Virus record (IMG/VR): IMGVR_UViG_3300021090_000017
Coordinates: 1-64,000 of that record
From: a virus
Direction: 5' to 3' (one strand)
Length of the DNA stretch: 64,000 bases
The number at the start of each line of letters is the position of its first letter. Position 1 is the stretch's first letter. Positions 8,313 through 49,622 of the stretch are shown here, in pieces. The position numbers were made by a program, and so were the translations under genes. A model generated the notes under the pieces. That model searched no databases. It had not been told where the DNA came from and worked only from the letters and a program-made list of their open reading frames with translations.

Positions 8313-9011
8313 TTAGATCTGATCTAGTTTTAAATTTTCTATTAAACTAGGATTAGTTAACATAGTTGAACTTATAGATATAGTTTTACATCCACAATAT
8401 TCATTTAAATAATTAATATCATCTAAAGTTACAAAGGAAGAACCATATATATTTAATCCTTCTTTATTAAACTTCTTTATATATGGCCAATTATATTTTT
8501 GAGATAACTTCCCAGACATACCACCAAACCAACATGGAACTGAATTTACTAATATTCCTTTAATTTTATTAAGGTCATATTTATATGGGTCTTGTAAATA
8601 GTTTAACTTTAGATATAATGGGTGTTTAGATTTAGGAATATTTTTATTTTTCATATCCTTTACATTCGGACAGGAAAAAGACAATTGGATTCCCTTTATA
8701 TTATCTATATTATTAAGTCTAAATACTAACTCATTTATTTGTATATCACTTCCAGCAATAGAAACTATTAAATTATCATTTTTATAATTTAATATATTTT
8801 CTAAAAACCAATTATATCCATTATTGTGATGAGAAACATGATTATAAATTGTATTACCTATTTTAACTATTGCAAAAGGATATCCTTTTGTTTCATTTAA
8901 TGTTATAGTTTTAGTCACTATTGGAAATGAAGGAAATTTATAATTAAATATTTTATGCCAAATATATCCATTTCCAAAACCCATAGATCCTGACCCATAA
9001 ATATAATTCAT
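8313..9011 (-). CDS. dihydroorotate dehydrogenase-like flavoprotein
   Basis: A 232-residue TIM-barrel protein, shorter than cellular PyrD (about 300). Class 1 DHODH features are visible in order: GSMGFGNGY near the start, IVTKTITLNETKGYP, SFSCPNV (residues about 125-131), YLKLNYL, ILVNSVP..FGGMSGK, and a C-terminal TLDDINYL and SISSTMLTNP phosphate-binding region. It would oxidise dihydroorotate to orotate using FMN. No electron-transfer subunit is visible. It abuts the helicase gene (1-base overlap). Truncation could also mean an altered substrate. Confidence 0.72.
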   Translation of the reverse strand: MNYIYGSGSMGFGNGYIWHKIFNYKFPSFPIVTKTITLNETKGYPFAIVKIGNTIYNHVSHHNNGYNWFLENILNYKNDNLIVSIAGSDIQINELVFRLNNIDNIKGIQLSFSCPNVKDMKNKNIPKSKHPLYLKLNYLQDPYKYDLNKIKGILVNSVPCWFGGMSGKLSQKYNWPYIKKFNKEGLNIYGSSFVTLDDINYLNEYCGCKTISISSTMLTNPSLIENLKLDQI

Positions 9012-10806: not shown

Positions 10807-11218
10807 TATTAACTCCTAAACTATTCAAAATTTCTTTATCTATTTCTTTAGCTAAATGATCTGACATAGATTGTATCATTTCCTGTTCTACATCAACTCC
10901 TTGAAATGCTTTCAAATCTGCGACAGCATCTAAAGACCAATTAGTTCTAAAACCTTTCCTCTTTGGTCTATTATATAACTTATCTAACCACTCAACTTTT
11001 CCAGTACCATTACAAAAACTACATTTATTATTATCTCTAACATCTTTAAAATTAGGATCTGCTCCAGTGCCATTACACTTATTACATTCTTCAAGACAGT
11101 CTTCTTCTTTTGTTATACCCTTAATATTTACAGTAGTCATATTTAAAGTTTTTTGCCCCCACAATGTAACACCTCCTGATGGAATTTTAATTGGATTAAT
11201 ACTACTATCATAAATCAT
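10799..11218 (-). CDS. zinc-finger protein of the KLDW-tail family
   Basis: A 139-residue protein. Two DnaJ-type knuckles, CNKCNGTG and CSFCNGTG (residues about 47 and 67), are followed by KVEWLDKLYNRP, the (K)(L/V)xW(x)(D/E) tail that recurs in at least six other genes here. The C-terminal 50 residues are helical. The knuckles should bind one zinc. It overlaps the transglycosylase gene by one base. The function of the family is unknown. Confidence 0.7.
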   Translation of the reverse strand: MIYDSSINPIKIPSGGVTLWGQKTLNMTTVNIKGITKEEDCLEECNKCNGTGADPNFKDVRDNNKCSFCNGTGKVEWLDKLYNRPKRKGFRTNWSLDAVADLKAFQGVDVEQEMIQSMSDHLAKEIDKEILNSLGVNNE

Positions 11219-12600
11219 TAAAACCCCAATATCCTTTCGTTTGTTAAATTCTTAAACTCATCTTTAGCTAAGAATTTATTTACTATAGACTTACAATAAT
11301 CTTCATCTAATGACTTCAATAACTCTAATGAAGTCACAACACTATTTGTCTTTGAAGTTTGTTTTTTTGTTATCTTACCACCATTCAAATTTCTAATAGT
11401 TATTTCAACATTAGTATTAAATTCATCTATATTACCAGACCTATATAATTCATAACTATTATCCACAAACTTTCTCATCTCTTCTTGAACTCTTGAATAT
11501 AAGTCTAAAGACTGAAGCATTAAATATACTTTAACATCTTCATGAAATGTTCCTGTTTCTGTACTATAAACTTCAAAAGGTTTAGGAATTGACTTCATAT
11601 TATGTCTTGAGCATATTTCGTCTAAATGAATTTCAAGTACATCATTAACCTTAAGATCATTTTTATATCTTAAATATAACTCATTTGTTCTTAAATCAAT
11701 CTTTTTAATAATACCATCATCATATATAAAAAGTCTTCTGCCAATCATTAAACCTTTAAATAGCCCAGAAGAATCATAAGTAATATTTAATTCAATTCCA
11801 TGACATTCTAAAACATGCTTTCTAAATAACTCATATACTAATACATCTCTAAAATTAGCACCACCTAAAACATGAAAGTCTAAATACCTTCTTCCATATT
11901 TTTTTGCTTGATTTAGTAAAGGTATTAATGGCAGAATATAAATTAGACACGGTATATTTGAATCTGAAGATGCATTAGCTACGATACCTCCAGTACCATG
12001 ATGTTGGAAATCATTAAACATATCATCTTTATGAAGTATGTCAGTGAAAATTCTCCATAACTCAGGAGTTCTGAAGTGATGAATATATATAATTTTATCT
12101 CTAACATTTTTAGGAAGTTGTCTAGCGGTATTATATGACCTTAAATTAAAATCATGCACATCATTAAAGTCATGGAAGATTGGGCAATTAGGACCTGGCG
12201 GAACATCTAAAATAAAAGCTCTATCATATACATCTACATGATCTACAAGAAATTTATAATACATTTCAAATAGAAGTTTGGTTTCTTCTCTTGTTAATTC
12301 TCCAATAGATATTTGGAAACCACCAGAGTCTACATGAAATAATGAATTATCAGCTAGTTTAGTATCTCTACAAATTTTAAAAAGGTTAGCTTCTTGTTCA
12401 TTATAGTTTGCATACTTTTTCTTTCCTTTAAAATTTTGTCCAAAACTATGTAATCCACCAGTTATAGTATCGCCCAAAAAATTTGAGATATCTTGTCTAG
12501 TGAATTGGTTATCAAATCTTCCTTTTTTATTCAATAAAAAACTATTAATAATTGTATATAACGTTTCCATCCCAGCAACTATATATCCAGATCTAAGCAT
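11218..12600 (-). CDS. dpdA: DpdA-like tRNA/DNA-guanine transglycosylase
   Basis: A 460-residue TGT-fold protein. Visible landmarks are VDSGGFQ (residues about 91-97, the base-recognition Asp), ILDVPPGPNC, FQHHGTGG, DFHVLGGAN and NITYDSSG (candidate nucleophile Asp). The C-terminal zinc site of bacterial TGT (CxCxxC...H) is not present. DpdA proteins insert 7-deazaguanines into DNA. QueE and a QueC-like gene elsewhere in the window support a preQ0-type substrate. Start chosen by GGAGC at 8 bases and an L-type promoter. Substrate identity is inferred. Confidence 0.75.
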   Translation of the reverse strand: MLRSGYIVAGMETLYTIINSFLLNKKGRFDNQFTRQDISNFLGDTITGGLHSFGQNFKGKKKYANYNEQEANLFKICRDTKLADNSLFHVDSGGFQISIGELTREETKLLFEMYYKFLVDHVDVYDRAFILDVPPGPNCPIFHDFNDVHDFNLRSYNTARQLPKNVRDKIIYIHHFRTPELWRIFTDILHKDDMFNDFQHHGTGGIVANASSDSNIPCLIYILPLIPLLNQAKKYGRRYLDFHVLGGANFRDVLVYELFRKHVLECHGIELNITYDSSGLFKGLMIGRRLFIYDDGIIKKIDLRTNELYLRYKNDLKVNDVLEIHLDEICSRHNMKSIPKPFEVYSTETGTFHEDVKVYLMLQSLDLYSRVQEEMRKFVDNSYELYRSGNIDEFNTNVEITIRNLNGGKITKKQTSKTNSVVTSLELLKSLDEDYCKSIVNKFLAKDEFKNLTNERILGF

Positions 12601-12666: not shown

Positions 12667-13143
12667 CTAGGTCAGTTTTATATTTAATTTAATAGTTTCT
12701 AAACTTTTATTTGGTTTTAAATTTATAATTATTTCATTTCCAGTAGGTATAACTATTACATCATAATCTAATAATCCCTTTCTATGTTTTAAATTATCTA
12801 ACATACTAATAACATTATATTCAACAATTTTCATATTCTTATTATCATTAAGTTCAAACGTTAAATCTTTAACACTATTCTCAATTTCTTTTTGAACATA
12901 GTTTACTAAATGTCTTACGTTAACATTATCTAAAGCAGAAGGATTTTTATTTTCTTTTCCTACTATATTTTCTATCCAATCTAATTTACCAGTTCCTTTA
13001 CATTTAGGACAAAAATTTGCAGTGGAGTATTCTTTTAAAATACCTACTCCACTGCAAATTTCACAATGTTTTTCACCTTCATTTAACTCTGCTTTATCTA
13101 ACTCTTTATCTACTTTCAAAAAACTTTTGAGTATGCCGCTCAT
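12667..13143 (-). CDS. zinc-finger protein of the KLDW-tail family
   Basis: A 158-residue protein. CEICSGVG and CPKCKGTG (residues about 26-53) are followed by KLDWIENIVGKE, the family tail. The remaining 90 residues resemble the helical/beta C-terminal part of the paralogue at 10799-11218 (VxxLxxFVQKEIE-like helix). It overlaps the thymidylate synthase stop by 4 bases. Role unknown; the paralogue also neighbours DNA-precursor genes. Confidence 0.7.
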   Translation of the reverse strand: MSGILKSFLKVDKELDKAELNEGEKHCEICSGVGILKEYSTANFCPKCKGTGKLDWIENIVGKENKNPSALDNVNVRHLVNYVQKEIENSVKDLTFELNDNKNMKIVEYNVISMLDNLKHRKGLLDYDVIVIPTGNEIIINLKPNKSLETIKLNIKLT

Positions 13144-13892
13144 AGTACAAGCATCTCCGGATTCTTATCTAACAGTTTATTAAACTCTTCCTTATCAAGC
13201 ATTACACCATTATCAACTGAAATTTTTAGAATGTTTAATGCGTTGGCCAATGGGAAATATTGCTCATAAATATGAATCCCATCACTATATGCAATAATAG
13301 GTCCATCTTCAACATCCATATGATCTTTAATAATTGATAATACATATTCTTTTAATAGTTGAAGGCCGCCTAGATTCTCTGGCATTCCTGCATACAAATC
13401 CCATGATCTAAAGAATACAGTCATATATAATTTTTTTTCAGCTACCTTGAATGATACAAGTCTTAAACAAGGAGGATCTTGTAAGAATGTAGTACTTACA
13501 TCTCCAATAGCAATGGTAGCTTGATTAGTGTTTCCTTTAGCTTTAATTAGAAGTTCAATTACTCTTTCTAATTGTTTAGTAATAAATTCTCCATATGTAT
13601 ATTGCTCGTTCTCAGTCTTTCTATCAGATAATATATATCTTTCAAAATATTCAATTATTTTAGTTTCATCAGTAGAACCTGAAACACCAGGAGGAAGAAT
13701 TGGGGCTAAAGGTCTATGCCAAGGTTCATTTATTTTAATATGAACATCTGTTAATTGACGTCTAATTTGTCCTTGATATGATCCACCTTTAACAACAAAA
13801 TCCCATCCATTTTTTATACATAGATTCATAACTTCTCTCCATGCATCGGCAATAGTTCTATCTTCTACATAATTACAATTTTCAATTATCAT
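13140..13892 (-). CDS. thymidylate synthase family enzyme (archaeal-type)
   Basis: A 250-residue ThyA-fold protein. DPPCLR carries the catalytic Cys (residue about 148), followed by KKLYMTVFFRSWDLYAGMPENLGGLQLL. The arrangement matches the archaeal-type branch. The Asn in MPENLGG aligns with the E. coli Asn177 that favours dUMP; dCMP hydroxymethylases have Asp there. It would therefore make dTMP or 5-hydroxymethyl-dUMP rather than modified dCMP. The distinction cannot be settled by eye. It is flanked by a kinase and zinc-finger gene in one operon. Confidence 0.7.
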   Translation of the reverse strand: MIIENCNYVEDRTIADAWREVMNLCIKNGWDFVVKGGSYQGQIRRQLTDVHIKINEPWHRPLAPILPPGVSGSTDETKIIEYFERYILSDRKTENEQYTYGEFITKQLERVIELLIKAKGNTNQATIAIGDVSTTFLQDPPCLRLVSFKVAEKKLYMTVFFRSWDLYAGMPENLGGLQLLKEYVLSIIKDHMDVEDGPIIAYSDGIHIYEQYFPLANALNILKISVDNGVMLDKEEFNKLLDKNPEMLVL

Positions 13893-14905: not shown

Positions 14906-15187
14906 TTAATTAACCACCTCGTCTCTAACCACTGCAAAAATTTCAGCAAGCATATAACATTTCATAATTTTATCATTTAACATAAATGCTTGCCCGCCAT
15001 GTTTTGCACAAATAATTGTATCTCCAGGTTTAATAGTTGTAACCTTAGCACCAACTGAAATTACTAACCCATATGTTTGAGGTTCCTTCTCTGCACCATC
15101 TGGAAGAATTATTCCACCTGATGATACCGACTCTTTCTTCATTACTTCTGCAACAACCTTATCTTCAATTGCAATAGGTATTCTCAT
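14906..15187 (-). CDS. GroES-type co-chaperonin
   Basis: A 93-residue Cpn10. VVAEVMKKESVSSGGIILPDG includes the mobile loop (GGIILP), and SVGAKVTTIKPGDTIICAKHGG and YMLAEIFAVV complete the barrel. It would cap host GroEL, as T4 gp31 does for capsid folding. The ATG at 15187 is chosen because AGGAGGG, encoded in the last codons of the bS21 gene, lies just upstream; a TTG extension is less likely. The start follows the bS21 stop by one base, so the two are coupled. Confidence 0.85.
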   Translation of the reverse strand: MRIPIAIEDKVVAEVMKKESVSSGGIILPDGAEKEPQTYGLVISVGAKVTTIKPGDTIICAKHGGQAFMLNDKIMKCYMLAEIFAVVRDEVVN

Positions 15188-15188
15188 T

Positions 15189-15464
15189 TTAACGATCCCT
15201 CCTGGTATCAAACTTTTTAGATTCTTCTAGCTTTAATCTCTGAATATTCTCTCTTCGTTTCCTTGCTTTCTTTATACTAGGTTTCTCATAAAATACTCTA
15301 TTTCTTACTTCTTGAATGATACCATCTTTTGAAACTTTTCTTTTGAACCTCTTCATAAGAGTTTCAAAATTTTCTCCTTCTCTTGCTCTGACAATCAAAC
15401 CATATTCTCCTGCTTCATTGTCTCTTGTGCTATACCTCTGTTTTCTATTGTACACTTGAATCAT
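15189..15464 (-). CDS. rpsU: ribosomal protein bS21 homologue
   Basis: A 91-residue protein. ENFETLMKRFKRKVSKDGII and QEVRNRVFYEKPS, followed by KKARKRRENIQR, match the core of bS21, the small-subunit protein that sits near the mRNA 3' anti-SD region. It has an extra N-terminal stretch of about 30 residues relative to E. coli bS21 (71 residues). Huge phages are known to carry bS21, presumably to bias host ribosomes. GAGAGGG precedes the ATG at 15464. Confidence 0.88.
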   Translation of the reverse strand: MIQVYNRKQRYSTRDNEAGEYGLIVRAREGENFETLMKRFKRKVSKDGIIQEVRNRVFYEKPSIKKARKRRENIQRLKLEESKKFDTRRDR

Positions 15465-15481
15465 CACCACCCTCTCGATTT

Positions 15482-15980: not shown

Positions 15981-16679
15981 TTATATAAATGAATATATGA
16001 TGTGTTCTCTACTAGTAAATCCAAATTTATATTCTTCACACTTATCAAATACATAACTTGAATTTTTAATTAGTTCATCATGTGTTCTTCCTTCTGGCAT
16101 TAAGAAAACTCTTTGATGAGGATACTGACCTAGATTTGAACTGAATGAAAGATATGAATCTAACCAGTGTAAATAATCATTTACTAATGCATTATCTTCA
16201 CATACTAATTTAATAAATACATTATCATGGGTTGACATTAAATCAGTAGTCATTTTTTTAACTTCATTTAATTCTTCTTGAGAGAAAAATTTAGGAGAGA
16301 ATAAAAATGTTATTTTATTTATATTAGATATTTTTTTACACTCTTCAATTAAATTAAGAAGAGCATATCCATTAGATTCAACATTAGCAATAGGATATCT
16401 TAGTTTAGTTAGTAAGTCTAAAGTTGAATTAAAGTTATCTCCAAATGTAGGTTCCCCACCTGTAATCATTAAACCAGCTGACTCTTCATCAATAGTTTTT
16501 TGAAGGTCAATTAAATTATAATCAGACTCTAAAGAGATTCTCATCTTAACCATAGTATCACAATATCTACAAACTCTGTTACAGGTTTTAAATCTTGTGA
16601 TTAACATTCTTCGACCAGTGTCAGGACCTTCTCCTTGCCAACTAGTCATACATTCAATTAGCTTAATAGTATCACTCAT
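15981..16679 (-). CDS. queE: 7-carboxy-7-deazaguanine synthase (QueE-like radical SAM)
   Basis: A 232-residue protein. SWQGEGPDTGRRMLITRF precedes the cluster motif CNRVCRYCD (residues about 33-41), then MITGGEPTFGD and VESNGYALL follow, as in QueE. It would convert 6-carboxytetrahydropterin to CDG with SAM and Mg2+. It works upstream of QueC and DpdA in 7-deazaguanine DNA modification. Strong GGAGGG site. Confidence 0.8.
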   Translation of the reverse strand: MSDTIKLIECMTSWQGEGPDTGRRMLITRFKTCNRVCRYCDTMVKMRISLESDYNLIDLQKTIDEESAGLMITGGEPTFGDNFNSTLDLLTKLRYPIANVESNGYALLNLIEECKKISNINKITFLFSPKFFSQEELNEVKKMTTDLMSTHDNVFIKLVCEDNALVNDYLHWLDSYLSFSSNLGQYPHQRVFLMPEGRTHDELIKNSSYVFDKCEEYKFGFTSREHIIYSFI

Positions 16680-17419: not shown

Positions 17420-20400
17420 CTAAAAAGTAAGTACTTCATTTTTCTTTTTAACTTCCATAATAGGTTCTAATAATAAATTATATCTATCTGTCCATGAAAA
17501 TGTTAACATTGCTTTTCTATCAGGAATAAAATAATCAGGTAATTTACTTTCTTCATCAGGAACAGCAATAATTTCTAACTTCTTTCCTTTTGCAATAAAC
17601 TCTTTATTATATCTTTCTACTACATCTTTTGGAGCCTTATCTAAATCTATTGCAGCAATCTTATAAAGATATCCTCTTGATCCCTGTCTGAATATATCAT
17701 ATACTAGATTGTTCCAATTTTGCATTGCTATTACACCTGGAGGAATTCTCTTATAATCTTCTTCATCCTTAGTAAATGAAACTGGTCTTGATATAGTTTT
17801 ATTTCCAGACATAATTCTAGTTACAAATTCTTTCTCTTTTCCATTTACATATTCATTAATTCTTGATATAGATATCTTTTCAGTCTTTAAAATAATATCT
17901 AATAGTTCTCTCAAACATTCCTTAGTATATGATGGGAAGTCTGATCTCTTAATCTCAACACCCATAGCTGTCATTTCATCAGTAGGTTTCTTTTCCTGTT
18001 CTATAACATGTAATGCATATCTCTTTTTAGCTAAGAATAATCCACGTCTAATAACTAACTCATTTTTTAATGCTAATCTATTTCTTTTAATATCAACATT
18101 TTTCATAGTTACAATTGGAGGAATAATTATCTTATTTAAAAAGGTTTCAATTTCCTCATTCCATTTAGTAACATCTTTTAATATATCTTCTTTAGATTTA
18201 TTTCTATCAACAACATTATTATAAGTAGCAAATAGTGAATCAGTATCACCAGTAATAATATAAGGAGTCTTTCTTACAACATCACCATACATTTCTTGAA
18301 CCGTTAATTTTTCAACTGTTTCTTTTATTCCAGTCTTAATTTTTCCTACATAACTATTGCCTTCAAGTATAGCTGCCTTGATTGCTTCTTGACCACTTAA
18401 TGTAACCGACCTACCACAATCTCTATCGAAGAACCGGAAGGAAGCATTACCTAGGACTCCGTACATCGCGTTTGCGAGGATCTTATATACTTGTTGACGT
18501 GTGTTATACAGAAGCCTAGCTGACTCGTCCTTTGCCTGTTTTGCTTCAAACATCTTATTTTTATAAACTTTTCTTGATGATAAAAGTAGGTCAAGAATCT
18601 CAGAATAGAATGATAACTCAGAGTCATGATTTTTAAATAAACACCCACTTATAGTTAAAATAGATTTTTCATCTTCTATTCTTTTTATTAAATCTTCTTT
18701 TCTTACAACAACTTCTGTCTTAGCGAAAGTAGGATCTAAAATTAAAGGAATTACATCAGGAAGTTTATCTCTATCATAATGGAAATAATATGCATGATCT
18801 GTAATTTTCATCTTTGCTAATAATGTATTAATCCCTATATTATAAGTTAGAATTAAACTTGGATATAGAGATGCAAAGTCAAAGTCTACTATCCAATCAT
18901 TAATACCAACAATAGGAGCTTTAACAAATGCACCCTCAAATTTAGTACTAGAACCATGTTCAGAATTCTTAGCTGCAAATCCTTTTTCTTTTAAATATGA
19001 AATTGATAATGAGTCAATTCTTCCAAACGGAGATGCTGATCCTCTGAATGTAGTTTTGCAAATATTCTTCAATTCATTTTGAAGTGCTATATGTTTCTTT
19101 CCTTTTAATTCTTTCCCATTACCTTCTTCTAATTCCACACAAATATTAACGTCTCTAATGTTATATTCAATTGCTTCATTAATATCTCTTACATATTTCT
19201 TTGCAAATGGTTCTCCAGAGTCTAACTTTTCTTTATTCAACTCTATCTTTGCAATAGTTCCTAATCTATAATTTTCTCTCTTAGTCATTTCAAATTCTTT
19301 ATATAACATAAGTTGGTCAAGAATTGTTAATCCGCTAACACTTGCATAACCTGACTCACTCTCAATATATGCATCATTTAATGGAGATAAGGTCTGCTGT
19401 TGAATTCCTAATTTTTTCATTCTATTGAATAGATATGCTAAATCGAAATTTATTACATTCCATCCAGTTAAAATATCAGGTTGTAAACTTCTCATATCTC
19501 TTATAAAGTTATTAACTAATTCATTCTCATTTTTACATACTATAATTTTAGCGTTTTGGCTTTGTTTAATAACTTGAGTTGAATTTTTTATAATCTCTTT
19601 ATGATCGATTACATAAACTATATATTCTCCATGATAATAATATGATAAAATTACTATTGGATAATTTGCTTCCTCTGCTTCCGGGAACTTATCATCATGA
19701 GTATAAACCTCAATATCAAGAAACATTACATTGAAATCTATTACCTTAGCTTCTTCTTTATTTAAAATGAAATAATCCATTGCTCTCTTAACACTTAACT
19801 TAATATCACCTTCATATGTTATGGTTGGGTCTAACATTTTCTTTTGACGATATGGAAGTTTAATTCTATTTAGATCATCAAACTTAACAATCTTTCTAGC
19901 CTCAATTTCCTTTGGCGCTTGATAACAATAGTAATCATCATTTGTTTTATGATAAACTTTATTATTCTTTTCATCTCTAAACATATACACACATTCATTA
20001 GTCTTGCTAATAAAATGAACATCTACCAATCTGAATTTATCTGTATAATATTGCTCAGGTATTTTATAATGCCAAACTCCCTTTTCTTTACTATCAGTAT
20101 TAGTATTTAATAATACTTCCTTGGCTCCAAAGAACTCAGATACTTTTCTAATATCTTCATCAAACTTCTCTTCAAAAGTTCTATTCCTATTTACAAAAGA
20201 TGGATGTACTGTAAGCAACACATCAAACTCTTTCCATTTAAAAAACTGCCCACGAATATTAGTTATACCTGCTTTTCCAATTCCAAATGCTGACATCGGA
20301 CTTGTACCTAATAGAACTACTAATTTAGGCTTACAAGTTTCAATAATATTGAAACAATTAACTTTACATAATTCAATAGTATCTTCATCTGGGTTTCCTG

Positions 20401-20680
20401 TTGTCCCATCATCTAAAATAGTTTGACATAGAACCGTATTTGTAAGTAGATAGTTTAATTTATCTATTCCATGTTTTTTGAAGTACTTCCTGAAGGTTTG
20501 TCCTGCTTTGCCTATTAGAGGGGTTCCTGTTTTTACTTCTTCTTTTCCAGGATTTTCTGCTATGAAAATCACATCTACTTTAGTCAAATCATTTTCACAA
20601 TTTGTTTCTAGTATACAACTTGGTTGGTCTAATAACTTACATTTTGAACAGTCTGCAATAGAAGATTTTATACTGAACAT
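17420..20680 (-). CDS. uracil-DNA glycosylase (family 4-like) fused to family B DNA polymerase
   Basis: 1086 residues. Residues 1 to about 195 form a family 4-like UDG: CSKCKLL, IAENPGKEEVKTGTPLIGKAGQ, TCKPKLVVLLG and LTVHPSF, with four Cys that could hold a 4Fe-4S cluster. The rest is a B-family polymerase: exonuclease motifs FLDIEV, GWNVINFD and YNIRDVN, then palm motifs DFASLYPSL, KILANAMYG and ITGDTDS. The proofreading acidic residues are present. Strong AAGGAGG site and L-type promoter. The fusion puts a uracil sensor or excision domain on the replicase. Confidence 0.88.
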   Translation of the reverse strand: MFSIKSSIADCSKCKLLDQPSCILETNCENDLTKVDVIFIAENPGKEEVKTGTPLIGKAGQTFRKYFKKHGIDKLNYLLTNTVLCQTILDDGTTGNPDEDTIELCKVNCFNIIETCKPKLVVLLGTSPMSAFGIGKAGITNIRGQFFKWKEFDVLLTVHPSFVNRNRTFEEKFDEDIRKVSEFFGAKEVLLNTNTDSKEKGVWHYKIPEQYYTDKFRLVDVHFISKTNECVYMFRDEKNNKVYHKTNDDYYCYQAPKEIEARKIVKFDDLNRIKLPYRQKKMLDPTITYEGDIKLSVKRAMDYFILNKEEAKVIDFNVMFLDIEVYTHDDKFPEAEEANYPIVILSYYYHGEYIVYVIDHKEIIKNSTQVIKQSQNAKIIVCKNENELVNNFIRDMRSLQPDILTGWNVINFDLAYLFNRMKKLGIQQQTLSPLNDAYIESESGYASVSGLTILDQLMLYKEFEMTKRENYRLGTIAKIELNKEKLDSGEPFAKKYVRDINEAIEYNIRDVNICVELEEGNGKELKGKKHIALQNELKNICKTTFRGSASPFGRIDSLSISYLKEKGFAAKNSEHGSSTKFEGAFVKAPIVGINDWIVDFDFASLYPSLILTYNIGINTLLAKMKITDHAYYFHYDRDKLPDVIPLILDPTFAKTEVVVRKEDLIKRIEDEKSILTISGCLFKNHDSELSFYSEILDLLLSSRKVYKNKMFEAKQAKDESARLLYNTRQQVYKILANAMYGVLGNASFRFFDRDCGRSVTLSGQEAIKAAILEGNSYVGKIKTGIKETVEKLTVQEMYGDVVRKTPYIITGDTDSLFATYNNVVDRNKSKEDILKDVTKWNEEIETFLNKIIIPPIVTMKNVDIKRNRLALKNELVIRRGLFLAKKRYALHVIEQEKKPTDEMTAMGVEIKRSDFPSYTKECLRELLDIILKTEKISISRINEYVNGKEKEFVTRIMSGNKTISRPVSFTKDEEDYKRIPPGVIAMQNWNNLVYDIFRQGSRGYLYKIAAIDLDKAPKDVVERYNKEFIAKGKKLEIIAVPDEESKLPDYFIPDRKAMLTFSWTDRYNLLLEPIMEVKKKNEVLTF

Positions 20681-20700
20681 TGTACCTCCTTACTTATAAG

Positions 20701-21744: not shown

Positions 21745-21770
21745 AACCGGGTCTTTAAGACCGGTTTTTT
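21745..21770. terminator. bidirectional terminator
   Basis: AACCGG..CCGGTT hairpin with an inner GTCTT/AAGAC-like stem and a T run on the plus strand. It separates convergent genes and ends the DnaJ-type gene/RNA unit. Confidence 0.85.
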
Positions 21771-22287
21771 ATTGTATTTTAATCATTTTAAAATGATCTG
21801 AAAGATATCTCTGTAATGATTTATCTATACCTTTCGGATCTTTTTTTGTCGATTTAATTTTTTCTTTCTTAGGATCATCAATACCAAATGAACTATATAT
21901 TTTATTTGAATCATCTGACTTCTCTATTATATCACATAATAAAGAAATATCATCATTTTTTAAAAATGAAATTCTACTTCTTAATTTATCATATAGTTTA
22001 GTCTTCCTCTTTGGGTATGATATATAATGTAAAGTATTCTTTTGAATTTTAAAGTCTAAAACACACTTTTTAATAAATTGAAATAACTCTTCTTTTTCGA
22101 TATATCTTAGACCAATATTATTCATATAAGTATCTAGATAATGATTTAATTTACCATTCTTTACAAATATACCAATAAGATATGTAGCAGTAATTGGAGA
22201 ATTATATTTTAATAAAACTTCTCTATCTGGTATTGGAGACTTTATATCTCCATCAAATAACCATTTTGAAAATGTCTTATATGGCAT
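21769..22287 (-). CDS. unknown 172-residue protein
   Basis: A helical, Lys-rich protein beginning MPYKTFSKWLFDGDIKSPIPD. Size and composition are loosely like small clamp-loader subunits (T4 gp62), but no firm motif is visible. It overlaps the glycosyltransferase stop by 11 bases. Confidence 0.55.
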   Translation of the reverse strand: MPYKTFSKWLFDGDIKSPIPDREVLLKYNSPITATYLIGIFVKNGKLNHYLDTYMNNIGLRYIEKEELFQFIKKCVLDFKIQKNTLHYISYPKRKTKLYDKLRSRISFLKNDDISLLCDIIEKSDDSNKIYSSFGIDDPKKEKIKSTKKDPKGIDKSLQRYLSDHFKMIKIQ

Positions 22288-27879: not shown

Positions 27880-28068
27880 CTAACATGTTCCAATTTGACC
27901 AGAATCATAAATGTTAATATGGTCTTCTTCATCTAGTATTAGATTGTATTCATGCCCGCCAACTTCAGTATCTATCTTAACCTTATAAACTTTATGGTGA
28001 TCCATTAATTGTATTAGCAATTCAGTAAATAAAGCATTTGCTAATGCATCTTCCATTGATTCATCCAT
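27880..28068 (-). CDS. small acidic protein, unknown
   Basis: 62 residues, helical start (MDESMEDALANALFTELLIQL) then beta strands. Overlaps the QueC-like stop by one base. No family recognised. Confidence 0.5.
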   Translation of the reverse strand: MDESMEDALANALFTELLIQLMDHHKVYKVKIDTEVGGHEYNLILDEEDHINIYDSGQIGTC

Positions 28069-28631
28069 TATTTAAATTCTCCGTATCCAGAATATATTTC
28101 ATCTTTTTTAATCTTATAATCTTTCTCTAATAATTGATATATGAGATCTTTCTGCATACCTAGTAATGGAGCATAAACTTTTATTGGTTTAACTCCAGCT
28201 ATTTCTAAAACCTTATTCATTCTACCAATATATTCTTGATAGCAATCTGGAAATAAATGTTCATAATCTTCCCAATTAGCTCCAAACCAAATCTCTTGAA
28301 TATTCATTGATTCTGCAATACCATAAGCTAGAGAAATGAATATTGAATTTCTTCCTGGTACATTATGAATGTCAACTCCTTCATACATACCTTTTTCTCC
28401 AGATCCAGTTAATGCACTATTAACACTAAAACCAGAAATTTTTATAGTCATATTTTCAATCTTATTTTCATCCAAATATTTTTTCGCAACATCTAATTCC
28501 TTTATATGTAACTGACCATAATTAATCATTAATGCTATAGGATTTCTGCCAGCTCTTTGTGCCATTTTCAATAGTATAGTAGAATCAGCTCCACCAGAAT
28601 ATAGAATTACTAGATCTTTTTTGGTATTCAT
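28068..28631 (-). CDS. QueC-like ATP pyrophosphatase lacking the zinc-binding tail
   Basis: 187 residues versus about 230 in E. coli QueC. LYSGGADSTILL (PP-loop), INYGQLHIKELDVAKKY, VPGRNSIFISLAYG and IWFGANWEDYEHLFPDC match QueC, which makes preQ0 from CDG. The protein stops at YSGYGEFK, where the CxxC-type zinc ligands should follow. Either it is a minimal variant, or another protein supplies the zinc function, or its product differs. Own L-type promoter and AAAGGAG site. Confidence 0.75.
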   Translation of the reverse strand: MNTKKDLVILYSGGADSTILLKMAQRAGRNPIALMINYGQLHIKELDVAKKYLDENKIENMTIKISGFSVNSALTGSGEKGMYEGVDIHNVPGRNSIFISLAYGIAESMNIQEIWFGANWEDYEHLFPDCYQEYIGRMNKVLEIAGVKPIKVYAPLLGMQKDLIYQLLEKDYKIKKDEIYSGYGEFK

Positions 28632-28955: not shown

Positions 28956-28990
28956 AAACACTCAGGGATATTTTTTATCCCTGAGTGTTT
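28956..28990. terminator. bidirectional terminator
   Basis: Near-perfect 15-bp stem (AACACTCAGGGATA and its complement) around a T-rich loop, with T runs on both strands. It separates convergent genes. Confidence 0.9.
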
Positions 28991-29679
28991 TTTATTGTAA
29001 ATCTTTCCGGCCTAAATCTAAATAAATCATTAATGTTAACTTCCATACAAGGAATCCCTATAGTTGATAAACTATATAATGATATGAATCCACCATTTAT
29101 TTTATTGCTAGATAAATCTAAATTAGGTATTCCTTTTCTTCTTTTAGATTCTAAGGTATAATTTCTAAGTAGATTAGATTCAATTAGTTTGGATCTTAAT
29201 AATATTCTAATATTATCTATATCCATTTTTCTTCTTAAATTACATATAATATGAAAGCTAGTTTTTCCTGTAAATCTAATTGATGCTGATTCTATAAAAT
29301 CAATTTTACCTTTTTTAATAAAATAATAAACATCATGAGCAGCATCCTTAGCTAAATCTAAATTGTCTACATCTATATCTATAATACCAAAATCTTCAGA
29401 TCTATTCATTACCCCATGAACTGATAAAGTTCTTCCAGTCATTACTTCTTCAAAATTAGATGTATTAATAAAAAATAATCTTTTGTCTTTTCCTTTTCTT
29501 CTTATAACTGTATGATTTAAATCAGTTGCAATATCAAAGAATACAGTTCTATTATTAAGATATCTTATTAATTTATATTTAACTTTTTGATAGTAATTCC
29601 AAACATCTAATTCGTTCAACCCATCTGGATAAAATATATTTTTAACTATTATAGTATTTGGATTTTTAGGATATGACAT
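28975..29679 (-). CDS. archaeo-eukaryotic primase-like (LigD-Pol/PrimPol) protein
   Basis: 234 residues. RTVFFDIATDLNHTVIRRKG, GIIDIDVDN (catalytic DxD, residues about 99-105), SIRFTGKTSFHI (SGxGxH-like) and NGGFISLYSLSTIGIPCMEV match the LigD polymerase/AEP pattern. It could prime phage replication, as no TOPRIM primase is seen in this window, or repair breaks. No ligase or nuclease domain is attached. Confidence 0.65.
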   Translation of the reverse strand: MSYPKNPNTIIVKNIFYPDGLNELDVWNYYQKVKYKLIRYLNNRTVFFDIATDLNHTVIRRKGKDKRLFFINTSNFEEVMTGRTLSVHGVMNRSEDFGIIDIDVDNLDLAKDAAHDVYYFIKKGKIDFIESASIRFTGKTSFHIICNLRRKMDIDNIRILLRSKLIESNLLRNYTLESKRRKGIPNLDLSSNKINGGFISLYSLSTIGIPCMEVNINDLFRFRPERFTIKNTQG

Positions 29680-33956: not shown

Positions 33957-35021
33957 TTATTTGTTCTGGATATCTGCAAGTGTCTTAATTAACAAACCAT
34001 TAGCAACAGCAGTCATCGGGTTCTTTGCTCTACGAATTTCTTTAATTTCAAATGGTAGATTATTCTTAGTTAAGTTATCTCTCAACATTTCGATGAATCC
34101 GGTTGGCATCGAAGTTCCTCCTGAGACAACAATAGGAAGTTTTTCATCAACTTCAATATCTACTTTATCACTAAATTCTTTAATAAGTTTTTTAACTGTA
34201 TAATCAATTAATGATTCATAGTAGTAACATAGGGCTTCAACTACTCTTGCTTTCTTTTTATCTTTAACTCCAATTGGGCCTTCAGTAAGATTCAATTCTT
34301 TCTCTTTAGTTGAAGTTACTCTATTTTGAACTATACCTAAATTCTGTGCAACATTTTCATCAATCCAATCACCTGATCTTGCAGTTGAGAATTTTAATAC
34401 TTCAACTCCTTTATACATAACACAACAATTAACCATACCAGCTCCGAATGAAAGACCTACACCAGAAAATCCTTCATTCTTACACTCTGAATATATAATA
34501 GCAGCTGCTTCATTAATAGGAGTATGATTTACTCCCAAGCTATTTAAGATCTTTCCAAATACTCTTGTATGATATGTAATAGATCTATTTTCATCAATAG
34601 CTTCTGCTGGAATTGAATATGAACAATATACTTCCTTATCTTTCGTATCACCTATAAGGTCTTTTATAATAAGAGTAAGAACATCCATTGCTGAAATTTC
34701 ATCTGATGAAATCAATCCCTTTTTCATTGGCCTTGAAATTTGATGACCGAATATATTAGCCATCTTAAATGCATCTTCTCCGATTACAAATAGTTTTCCA
34801 TCATCTCCTTTAACATATGAAATATTAGATAATTCATTAACTGAAATTTCATCTTGGTCTAATGGAAGGAATACATTCCTAGTTAGTTTTACATCATTAG
34901 AATCTGATCTGGCGCAAACAATATTCATTGTACCACAATCAAGTCCTATAGACACAATCTTATTTTTCTTCTTTTCGATTTTCACATCTTTCACAAGTTC
35001 GTCTGATATCATGTCCGTCAT
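33957..35021 (-). CDS. actin-like ATPase (ParM/MreB/Hsp70 fold)
   Basis: 354 residues. Phosphate-1 motif SIGLDCGTMNIV (residues about 19-30), a connect region NEAAAIIYSE, phosphate-2 GLSFGAGMVNCCV, and adenosine motif PIVVSGGTSMPTGFIE near 300. It may form filaments that position or segregate phage DNA or heads, a role played by tubulin-like PhuZ in some jumbo phages. Own L-type promoter and GGAGG site. Confidence 0.8.
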   Translation of the reverse strand: MTDMISDELVKDVKIEKKKNKIVSIGLDCGTMNIVCARSDSNDVKLTRNVFLPLDQDEISVNELSNISYVKGDDGKLFVIGEDAFKMANIFGHQISRPMKKGLISSDEISAMDVLTLIIKDLIGDTKDKEVYCSYSIPAEAIDENRSITYHTRVFGKILNSLGVNHTPINEAAAIIYSECKNEGFSGVGLSFGAGMVNCCVMYKGVEVLKFSTARSGDWIDENVAQNLGIVQNRVTSTKEKELNLTEGPIGVKDKKKARVVEALCYYYESLIDYTVKKLIKEFSDKVDIEVDEKLPIVVSGGTSMPTGFIEMLRDNLTKNNLPFEIKEIRRAKNPMTAVANGLLIKTLADIQNK

Positions 35022-48879: not shown

Positions 48880-49113
48880 ATGAAATCATATTTAAATTTC
48901 ATAGGATTTACTGGTTGGGTAGCAATATGGTTTAGATTCTCAGGTATTTTAGTAGGGGTAACTATATTATATTCATGTACTGATTTTTTAATAGATATTA
49001 TAAAAGAACATAATGAAATTGGTATTATGTTTTTACCTACATTAGTAATATTTATTTGTTTTGCGATATTTATAATAATTGGAAGTTTACTAAAACACAA
49101 GGAGGATAGCTAA
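48880..49113 (+). CDS. small two-helix membrane protein
   Basis: 77 residues with membrane helices at about 6-30 and 43-68. AAGGAGG site. One-base overlap with the HD hydrolase gene. No family recognised. Confidence 0.6.
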   Translation: MKSYLNFIGFTGWVAIWFRFSGILVGVTILYSCTDFLIDIIKEHNEIGIMFLPTLVIFICFAIFIIIGSLLKHKEDS

Positions 49114-49622
49114 TGATTTTAAAAGCAATAAAGTTTGCAGAGAAGAAGCATAAAGGACAAACCAGAAAGGTATCTGGGGAACCATATTTAACACATCCTA
49201 TTATGGCAAGCTATGTGATTGTTAAATATAAAAAATCAAAACATATTGAGGAATTGATTGTTTCTATGATCCTCCATGATACTCTTGAAGATACTGAAAC
49301 CACTTTTGTTGAGTTGGCTAAAAACTTTACTCCATTGGTTGCATCATTAGTTCATGAATTAACTAATGATGTTAATGAAATAAAAAGAGTTGGTAAAAAG
49401 GAATATCTTCTTACAAAAATGTTAGGTATATCAAACTACGCTTTAGTTTGTAAATTGATAGATACTATGGTTAATATTGATGACCACCCAAAACCTGAAT
49501 ATGTTAATAACACTTATATTAATTTAATAGAGTTAGCTAAAAAAAGAAAATTAACTAAATCTCAAATATCAATATGGGATGACCTAATGATTAAAGTACA
49601 AAATATAAGGTCAAAATATTAA
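49113..49622 (+). CDS. HD-domain (p)ppGpp hydrolase-like (MESH1/SpoT-HD type)
   Basis: 169 residues. AIKFAEKKHKGQTRKVSGEPYLTHP, ILHDTLEDTETTF (HD..ED) and CKLIDTMVNIDDHP are the ordered motifs of the RelA/SpoT hydrolase domain, with no synthetase domain. Size fits single-domain alarmone hydrolases. It could lower ppGpp during infection. The usual KLADRLHN is KLIDTMVN, keeping the Asp and Asn. Confidence 0.75.
   Translation: MILKAIKFAEKKHKGQTRKVSGEPYLTHPIMASYVIVKYKKSKHIEELIVSMILHDTLEDTETTFVELAKNFTPLVASLVHELTNDVNEIKRVGKKEYLLTKMLGISNYALVCKLIDTMVNIDDHPKPEYVNNTYINLIELAKKRKLTKSQISIWDDLMIKVQNIRSKY

What the first reader, a model, noticed from the sequence alone, without database searches (positions are those of the whole stretch)
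17420..20680. Uracil-DNA glycosylase domain fused to the replicative family B polymerase
Seen: family 4-like UDG motifs (ENPGKEE..TGTPLIGKAGQ, HPS) in residues 1-195, continuous with exonuclease and palm motifs. Known: vaccinia UDG D4 is a processivity subunit, and archaeal polymerases sense template uracil. A covalent replicase-UDG fusion would couple uracil recognition to synthesis, or act as a DNA grip. It fits a phage with tight control of dUMP (deaminase, thymidylate synthase).
Basis: partly seen in the sequence, partly recalled or inferred. Interest (0 to 1): 0.82.

Follow-up and report, generated by a model that had tools for sequence, protein, structure and literature searches.

The report
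Phage DNA polymerase with repair domain
A group of large uncultivated phages carries a copying enzyme permanently joined to an iron-sulfur DNA-repair domain that normally removes uracil; the join is real and fixed in this group, and two members keep the domain although its uracil-cutting site is gone, which suggests that it also helps the copying machine itself.

Summary
One open frame (17420-20680, minus strand, 1086 aa, strong ribosome-binding site) joins a family-4-type uracil-DNA glycosylase (UDG) domain to a complete T4/RB69-type family B replicase by a flexible linker. It is no artefact: all 38 distinct sequences with a complete N-terminus carry the domain in frame; it is the best conserved domain and evolves under the same constraint as the polymerase. 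36 of 38 keep the excision motifs. The four cluster cysteines are kept wherever checked. The pocket has its own signature (Asn for Gly/Ala in motif 1, Leu for the stacking Phe). Two members (L007, L156) independently lost the catalytic His and motif 1 but kept the domain, its cysteines and an intact polymerase. I therefore favour a dual role: tethered uracil recognition and probable excision, on top of a catalysis-independent role in the replicase, as proposed for vaccinia D4. Activity and processivity are inferred, not shown. The kind is not wholly new: UDG domains on phage family A polymerases are published (PaBG) and one has a solved structure (phiLo, PDB 9qhs). I found no earlier UDG fusion to a family B replicase in the annotated phage records or papers searched.

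The parts
17420..20680 (-). UDG-family B DNA polymerase fusion gene, 1086 aa
   Evidence: continuous ORF; Pfam/PHROG/NCBIfam domains
20685..20691 (-). Shine-Dalgarno AAGGAGG upstream of the ATG
   Evidence: read directly
20132..20659 (-). UDG domain, residues 8-183
   Evidence: Pfam UDG; family-4 UDG fold; most conserved domain, 58.6% mean pairwise identity
20639..20650 (-). CxxC, C11 and C14: first two predicted [4Fe-4S] ligands
   Evidence: 33/33 in the alignment, also kept in L156
20426..20428 (-). C85: third predicted cluster ligand
   Evidence: 33/33, kept in L156
20366..20368 (-). C105: fourth predicted cluster ligand
   Evidence: 33/33, kept in L156
20537..20560 (-). motif 1 AENPGKEE (41-48): E42, N43, E48 = Tth E41, G42, E47
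   Evidence: mapped on 1ui0; E42 33/33, N43 32/33, E48 33/33
20186..20206 (-). motif 2 HPSFVNR (159-165): H159 = catalytic Tth H155
   Evidence: H159 32/33; lost in L007 and L156
20069..20131 (-). linker, residues 184-204
   Evidence: pLDDT < 50 at 187-196; 25% mean pairwise identity
19733..20068 (-). polymerase N-terminal domain, residues 205-316
   Evidence: between linker and exonuclease; confident model; covered by phrog_262 and the RB69 fold match
19046..19732 (-). 3'-5' exonuclease domain, residues 317-545 (D322, E324, D413, D510)
   Evidence: Pfam exo1; residues 34/34
17438..19045 (-). polymerase palm, fingers and thumb, residues 546-1081 (D601, K733, Y740, D812, D814)
   Evidence: Pfam DNA_pol_B; RB69 gp43 fold
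17423..17437 (-). conserved C-terminal tail, LTF/LTI type; possible clamp-binding peptide
   Evidence: C-termini listed; function inferred from the RB69 C-terminal clamp peptide, not tested
13140..13892 (-). thymidylate synthase-like gene (context)
   Evidence: TIGR03283 4e-25; Pfam PF00303
27349..27870 (-). dCMP deaminase-like gene (context)
   Evidence: PF00383 2.8e-17
15981..16679 (-). QueE-like radical SAM gene, conserved beside the polymerase (context)
   Evidence: phrog_2076 7.6e-30; in 20 of 22 long loci

Best explanation
This is the replicative family B polymerase of a clade of large T4-like phages, with a family-4-type iron-sulfur UDG module fixed at its N-terminus. Shown from sequence: the fusion, its conservation, the cluster cysteines, the altered pocket and two losses of the excision site. 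Inferred: the module is an extra DNA-binding arm of the replicase next to the polymerase's N-terminal domain, which helps hold the enzyme on DNA or assemble the replisome whether or not it can cut; in most members it also recognises and probably excises uracil (from cytosine deamination or dUMP misincorporation) close to the fork, so that repair or stalling is coupled to synthesis.
For: All 38 distinct sequences with a complete N-terminus carry the domain in frame, including those found with the polymerase alone as query. It is the best conserved domain (58.6% mean pairwise identity against 51.7% for the polymerase core, 47.6% exonuclease, 25% linker), with dN/dS about 0.12, equal to the polymerase core. 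Excision residues E42, E48, N81 and H159 are each kept in at least 32 of 33. In 17 of 18 records with the fusion it is the only UDG-superfamily match. L007 lost N43, G45, G60 and H159; L156 lost E42, N43, G45, E48, N81, H159, P160 and N164; both keep C11, C14, C85 and C105 and every exonuclease and polymerase residue checked. The polymerase tree forces two independent losses. L156's record encodes ThyX, so a shift to uracil-DNA does not explain its loss. Precedent: vaccinia D4 has a catalysis-independent role in replication (abstract of PMC1936997).
Against: No activity, DNA binding or processivity was measured. Two degenerate members are few, and L156 has no close relative here on which to show that its eroded domain is still under selection. 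RB69-type polymerases normally get processivity from a sliding clamp through their C-terminus, and a conserved C-terminal tail is present here too, so a grip may be unnecessary; the clamp searches were inconclusive. In Tth UDG, substitutions at G42 and loss of the F54 ring reduce activity (PMC5387724), so excision may be weak even in 'intact' members. Cutting uracil in a single-stranded template would leave an abasic block.
Confidence: 0.5

Rival explanations
1. Pure repair enzyme: the domain is an ordinary active UDG tethered to the replicase only so that uracil is removed at the fork; L007 and L156 are decaying copies.
For: Catalytic His and pocket Asn kept in 32 of 33; usually the only UDG in the record; dCMP deaminase and thymidylate synthase-like genes in the window; 11 of 13 records show no dUTPase.
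Against: In two independent lineages the active site is gone but domain length, cluster cysteines and reading frame remain; no member lost the domain. Motif 1 and the stacking residue differ from active cellular family-4 enzymes.
Confidence: 0.25
2. Pure structural part: the domain no longer excises uracil in any member; its conserved pocket is only a DNA- or uracil-binding surface, i.e. a sensor or grip.
For: Departures G42N and F54L are nearly fixed in the clade, and in Tth UDG changes at G42 and loss of the F54 ring lower activity (PMC5387724). SPO1-type family A fusions such as EalM132 have lost cysteines and most pocket residues but keep the domain.
Against: Near-perfect retention of H159, N81, E42 and E48 would not be expected for a pure scaffold; the two lineages without them show that a scaffold does not need them.
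Confidence: 0.15
3. The domain reads another base: the Asn in motif 1, as in family 2, and the Leu pocket fit a damaged or phage-modified base rather than uracil. The phages look like 7-deazaguanine users, and the solved family A relative carries a modified template.
For: N43 and L55 signature; QueE beside the polymerase in 20 of 22 long loci, QueC in the window; a Brevundimonas family A UDG fusion lies beside QueC/D/E genes; 9qhs title 'with modified template'.
Against: E48, equivalent to Tth E47 that blocks entry of thymine (PMC5387724), and N81, which pairs with uracil, are kept; such a pocket should not admit a purine. The co-occurrence was not tested statistically.
Confidence: 0.07
4. Assembly or frame artefact joining two genes.
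For: The source is a metagenomic contig.
Against: The same continuous frame in 37 other distinct sequences from many samples.
Confidence: 0.01

Closest known systems
UDG-family A polymerase fusions of phages: Thermus phage phiLo Pol I (PDB 9qhs), Pseudomonas phage PaBG gp205 and relatives (PMC7412058), SPO1-type polymerases such as Exiguobacterium phage vB_EalM-132
   Same: N-terminal family-4-like UDG domain in one chain with a phage DNA polymerase and its 3'-5' exonuclease; some intact (phiLo, ctfzr933), some degenerate (EalM132)
   Different: Different polymerase superfamily. In the UDG tree the family B fusions form one clade (100/100) apart from them, and the family A fusions fall in more than one place.
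Vaccinia E9-A20-D4 holoenzyme
   Same: Family B polymerase working with a UDG that is a replication component (PMC5682278)
   Different: D4 is a separate protein of another UDG family bridged by A20; here one chain, family-4 type with cluster cysteines; no A20 counterpart was looked for
Family-4 uracil-DNA glycosylases (Thermus 1ui0, Thermotoga 1vk2, Sulfolobus 4zbx)
   Same: Fold, four cysteines, E41, E47, N80 and H155 equivalents
   Different: Fused; motif 1 ENPG instead of E(A/G)PG; Leu for F54; motif 3 Asn not aligned
T4/RB69 gp43 polymerase
   Same: Whole polymerase fold and catalytic residues
   Different: gp43 has no UDG domain; identity about 20% in the structural alignment

Membership tests
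Family-4 uracil-DNA glycosylase | UDG fold closest to family 4 | tested here: met
   1ui0/1ui1 best PDB fold matches, E about 1e-15; NCBIfam family-4 models match but below their cut-offs
Family-4 uracil-DNA glycosylase | four [4Fe-4S] cysteines | tested here: met
   C11, C14, C85, C105 in 33/33; cluster itself not testable here
Family-4 uracil-DNA glycosylase | motif 1 GE(A/G)PG | tested here: not met
   (A/S)ENPG in 32/33; Gly/Ala replaced by Asn
Family-4 uracil-DNA glycosylase | catalytic His in motif 2 and uracil-binding Asn | tested here: met
   H159 and N81 each 32/33
Family-4 uracil-DNA glycosylase | stacking Phe (Tth F54) and motif 3 Asn (N89) | tested here: not met
   Leu in 32/33; N89 column is Gly in 31/33 but the loop alignment is unsure
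Family-4 uracil-DNA glycosylase | uracil excision on ss and ds DNA | not testable with these tools
   no assay
UdgX | KRRIH loop with H109 and GEQPG motif | tested here: not met
   ENPG motif and no KRRIH in the alignment
T4-type family B replicative polymerase | Exo I-III and polymerase motifs A-C | tested here: met
   all residues invariant; RB69 fold
T4-type family B replicative polymerase | sliding clamp partner (gp45) | tested here: inconclusive
   no match to PF09116 or PF00712; only weak PF02916 matches inside an RpoB-like ORF; the PF09116 search rang in no control
Vaccinia D4-type UDG processivity factor | UDG physically part of the polymerase holoenzyme | tested here: met
   one chain
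Vaccinia D4-type UDG processivity factor | raises processivity | not testable with these tools
   needs purified protein
UDG-family A polymerase fusion | family A polymerase domain | tested here: not met
   no family A match; PF00476 absent in the record

The most novel reading that the evidence does not exclude
In this phage clade the iron-sulfur UDG module has become an indispensable domain of a family B replicase whose fold and cluster, not its excision chemistry, are what selection keeps: a cellular repair enzyme turned into a replicase part, as in poxviruses but by direct fusion and probably independently.
Probability: 0.35. Interest if true: 0.75.

Novelty: new variant of a known kind. 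Interest (0 to 1): 0.58.

Why it matters
UDGs are attached to replicases in poxviruses (as a partner protein) and in several phage groups with family A polymerases; this adds a clade with a T4-type family B replicase. That recurrence, with repeated loss of the excision site but not of the domain, makes an open question testable: is a UDG on a replicase there to remove uracil, or to hold DNA? The natural set of intact, altered (L002, N81S) and dead (L007, L156) versions on one polymerase is ready for such a comparison. It also gives a family B replicase with a predicted N-terminal iron-sulfur cluster.

Tried and rejected
(1) Uracil-containing DNA as the reason for the dead domains: rejected for L156, whose record has ThyX; open for L007, whose 66-kb fragment shows dUTPase but no synthase. 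(2) A clamp hidden in a 1000-aa ORF: weak PF02916 hits lie in an RNA polymerase beta-like ORF, so taken as chance. (3) The conserved 172-aa gene in front of the polymerase as clamp-loader subunit: its profile found nothing in the PDB and the protein nothing in PHROGs. (4) One origin for family A and family B fusions: the tree does not group them as one, but deep branches are weak, so undecided. (5) An archaeal host, suggested by a Thermoplasmatales MAG hit and a volactin-like gene: bS21- and GroES-like genes point to a bacterial host; the MAG contig is probably mis-binned; host unknown. (6) The genome-contig scan gave only that one further fusion. (7) Literature on PDB 9qhs: none held.

Full report
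Observation. The gene at 17420-20680 (minus) is one open frame of 1086 aa with a strong Shine-Dalgarno sequence. The N-terminal part matches Pfam UDG (71 bits), the rest the family B exonuclease and polymerase and the phage DNA polymerase family phrog_262. AlphaFold2 with a 34-row alignment gives mean pLDDT 86.7; the segment 187-196 between the parts is below 50. The polymerase part matches RB69 gp43 over nearly its length. The UDG domain modelled alone (pLDDT 87.8) matches first the family-4 UDGs of Thermus, Sulfolobus and Thermotoga, then UdgX, then the phiLo family A polymerase 9qhs.

Relatives. Searches of IMG/VR with the protein, an alignment, the UDG domain alone and the polymerase alone, plus one locus of a genome collection, give a clade of about 40-88% identity in contigs of up to 312 kb. 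By my count 38 distinct sequences (the window included) have a complete N-terminus and all carry the domain in frame; those without it here are cut by the contig end or are distant T4-like polymerases at 21-29% identity. Gene order around the polymerase is shared, so this is one phage lineage. In the annotated phage collection no record covers 80% of the protein, and the UDG hits inspected there sit on family A polymerases or stand alone; not every hit was opened.

Selection. Mean pairwise identity is 58.6% in the UDG domain, 54.5% in the polymerase N-terminal domain, 47.6% in the exonuclease, 51.7% in the polymerase core and 25% in the linker. Against L002 and L003, dN/dS of the UDG part is 0.12 in both pairs, as in the core (0.13-0.14).

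Active site. Mapped on Thermus UDG (pocket residues as in PMC5387724): E41, E47, N80 and H155 are kept; G42 is Asn in 32/33, F54 is Leu in 32/33, and the N89 column is Gly in 31/33 although that loop is hard to align. PMC5387724 notes that families 1 and 2 carry a water-positioning Asp or Asn at the G42 position and that family 4 lacks it and uses N89. The clade may therefore have moved the water-holding Asn from motif 3 to motif 1; this is inference. The same paper reports that substitutions at G42 and F54A reduce activity, so reduced excision is equally possible. The four cluster cysteines are in 33/33.

Dead versions. L007 has F43, S45, N60 and N159 in place of N, G, G and H. L156, found only with the polymerase as query, has lost nearly all pocket residues (28% identity in this domain) yet keeps the four cysteines, while two other conserved cysteines (C22, C116) are gone. 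Both have every polymerase and exonuclease residue checked. They lie on separate, supported branches. L156's record carries ThyX and no other UDG, so neither uracil-DNA nor a second UDG explains the loss. A domain that persists with its cysteines but without its chemistry argues for a role in the replicase; near-perfect conservation of the chemistry elsewhere argues for a uracil role too. Hence the dual reading.

A free relative. L046 encodes the same kind of UDG as a separate 229-aa protein, between a 5'-3' exonuclease-like gene and a gene that by eye resembles a DnaN clamp. In the UDG tree it nests inside the fused clade (99/89 with L005), so it probably derives from a fused ancestor; its branch is long.

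Context. The window has a dCMP deaminase and a thymidylate synthase-like gene. Among the first 13 records with the fusion, 11 have the ThyA-like gene and no dUTPase; the two without it have ThyX and dUTPase. Absences in partial records are weak evidence. QueE and QueC, and a conserved gene with a DSGGFQ motif typical of tRNA-guanine transglycosylases (not confirmed by profile), suggest 7-deazaguanine DNA modification of the kind described in PMC6884629 (abstract).

Known or new. PMC7412058 describes an N-terminal UDG domain on DNA polymerase I in all 11 members of the PaBG group; PDB 9qhs is the phiLo family A enzyme; UdgX entries are titled 'Phage SPO1 DNA polymerase-related protein', which shows that the link is old. 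Vaccinia D4/A20 is the functional parallel (PMC5682278; PMC1936997 abstract). A UDG fused to a family B replicase was not found in the papers I could search; subscription papers and preprints were not searched. So: a new variant of a known kind, with a useful natural experiment inside it.

Noticed in passing
L156:4359-7598 (IMGVR_UViG_3300033146_002242): UDG-PolB fusion whose UDG motifs are fully eroded while the four cluster cysteines and the polymerase are intact.
   Followed up: yes
L046:7986-8672: Standalone UDG of the same subfamily between a 5'-3' exonuclease-like gene and a DnaN-clamp-like gene (by eye); no family A polymerase in the 23-kb record.
   Followed up: partly
window 33957-35021: Actin homologue with a very strong match to Pfam Volactin (256 bits), a family named after a haloarchaeal actin.
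   Followed up: no
window 15981-16679, 28068-28631, 11218-12600: QueE-like and QueC-like genes and a conserved DSGGFQ-motif protein (possible DpdA/TGT type, no profile match): a likely 7-deazaguanine DNA modification set, conserved with the UDG-polymerase.
   Followed up: partly
L093:493-6403 (Brevundimonas phage StAshley): A family A UDG-polymerase lies beside QueC/QueD/QueE genes; other family A fusions sit near thymidylate synthase, dCMP deaminase or pyrimidine hydroxymethylase. Possible link of replicase UDGs with modified-DNA phages, not tested.
   Followed up: no
window 21769-22287: 172-aa protein of unknown family just upstream of the polymerase in 20 of 22 long loci; candidate replisome partner.
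   Followed up: partly
window 8313-9011: Dihydroorotate dehydrogenase-like protein (4e-12), unusual for a phage.
   Followed up: no
window 15189-15470 and 14906-15211: Phage-borne ribosomal protein bS21-like and GroES-like genes, pointing to a bacterial host.
   Followed up: no
L065 (in G007) and homologous places in G001, G004, G006, G008, G010: About 1000-aa open frames; the one read (L065) looks by eye like a multisubunit RNA polymerase beta subunit, so these relatives may encode their own RNA polymerase.
   Followed up: no
records G000-G012, G027-G031: ThyA-like synthase and ThyX exclude each other across the clade; the records with dUTPase (G003, G006, G028) lack the ThyA-like gene.
   Followed up: partly
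G029:C1:88882-89292 (L176): The only record with a fusion that also has a second UDG (305-aa frame, 85 bits).
   Followed up: no
window 49113-49622: RelA/SpoT-type N-terminal (HD) domain protein (TIGR00691 4e-19).
   Followed up: no
window 28975-29679: Protein with an acidic DIDVD stretch that by eye recalls archaeo-eukaryotic primases; no Pfam, PHROG or NCBIfam match.
   Followed up: no
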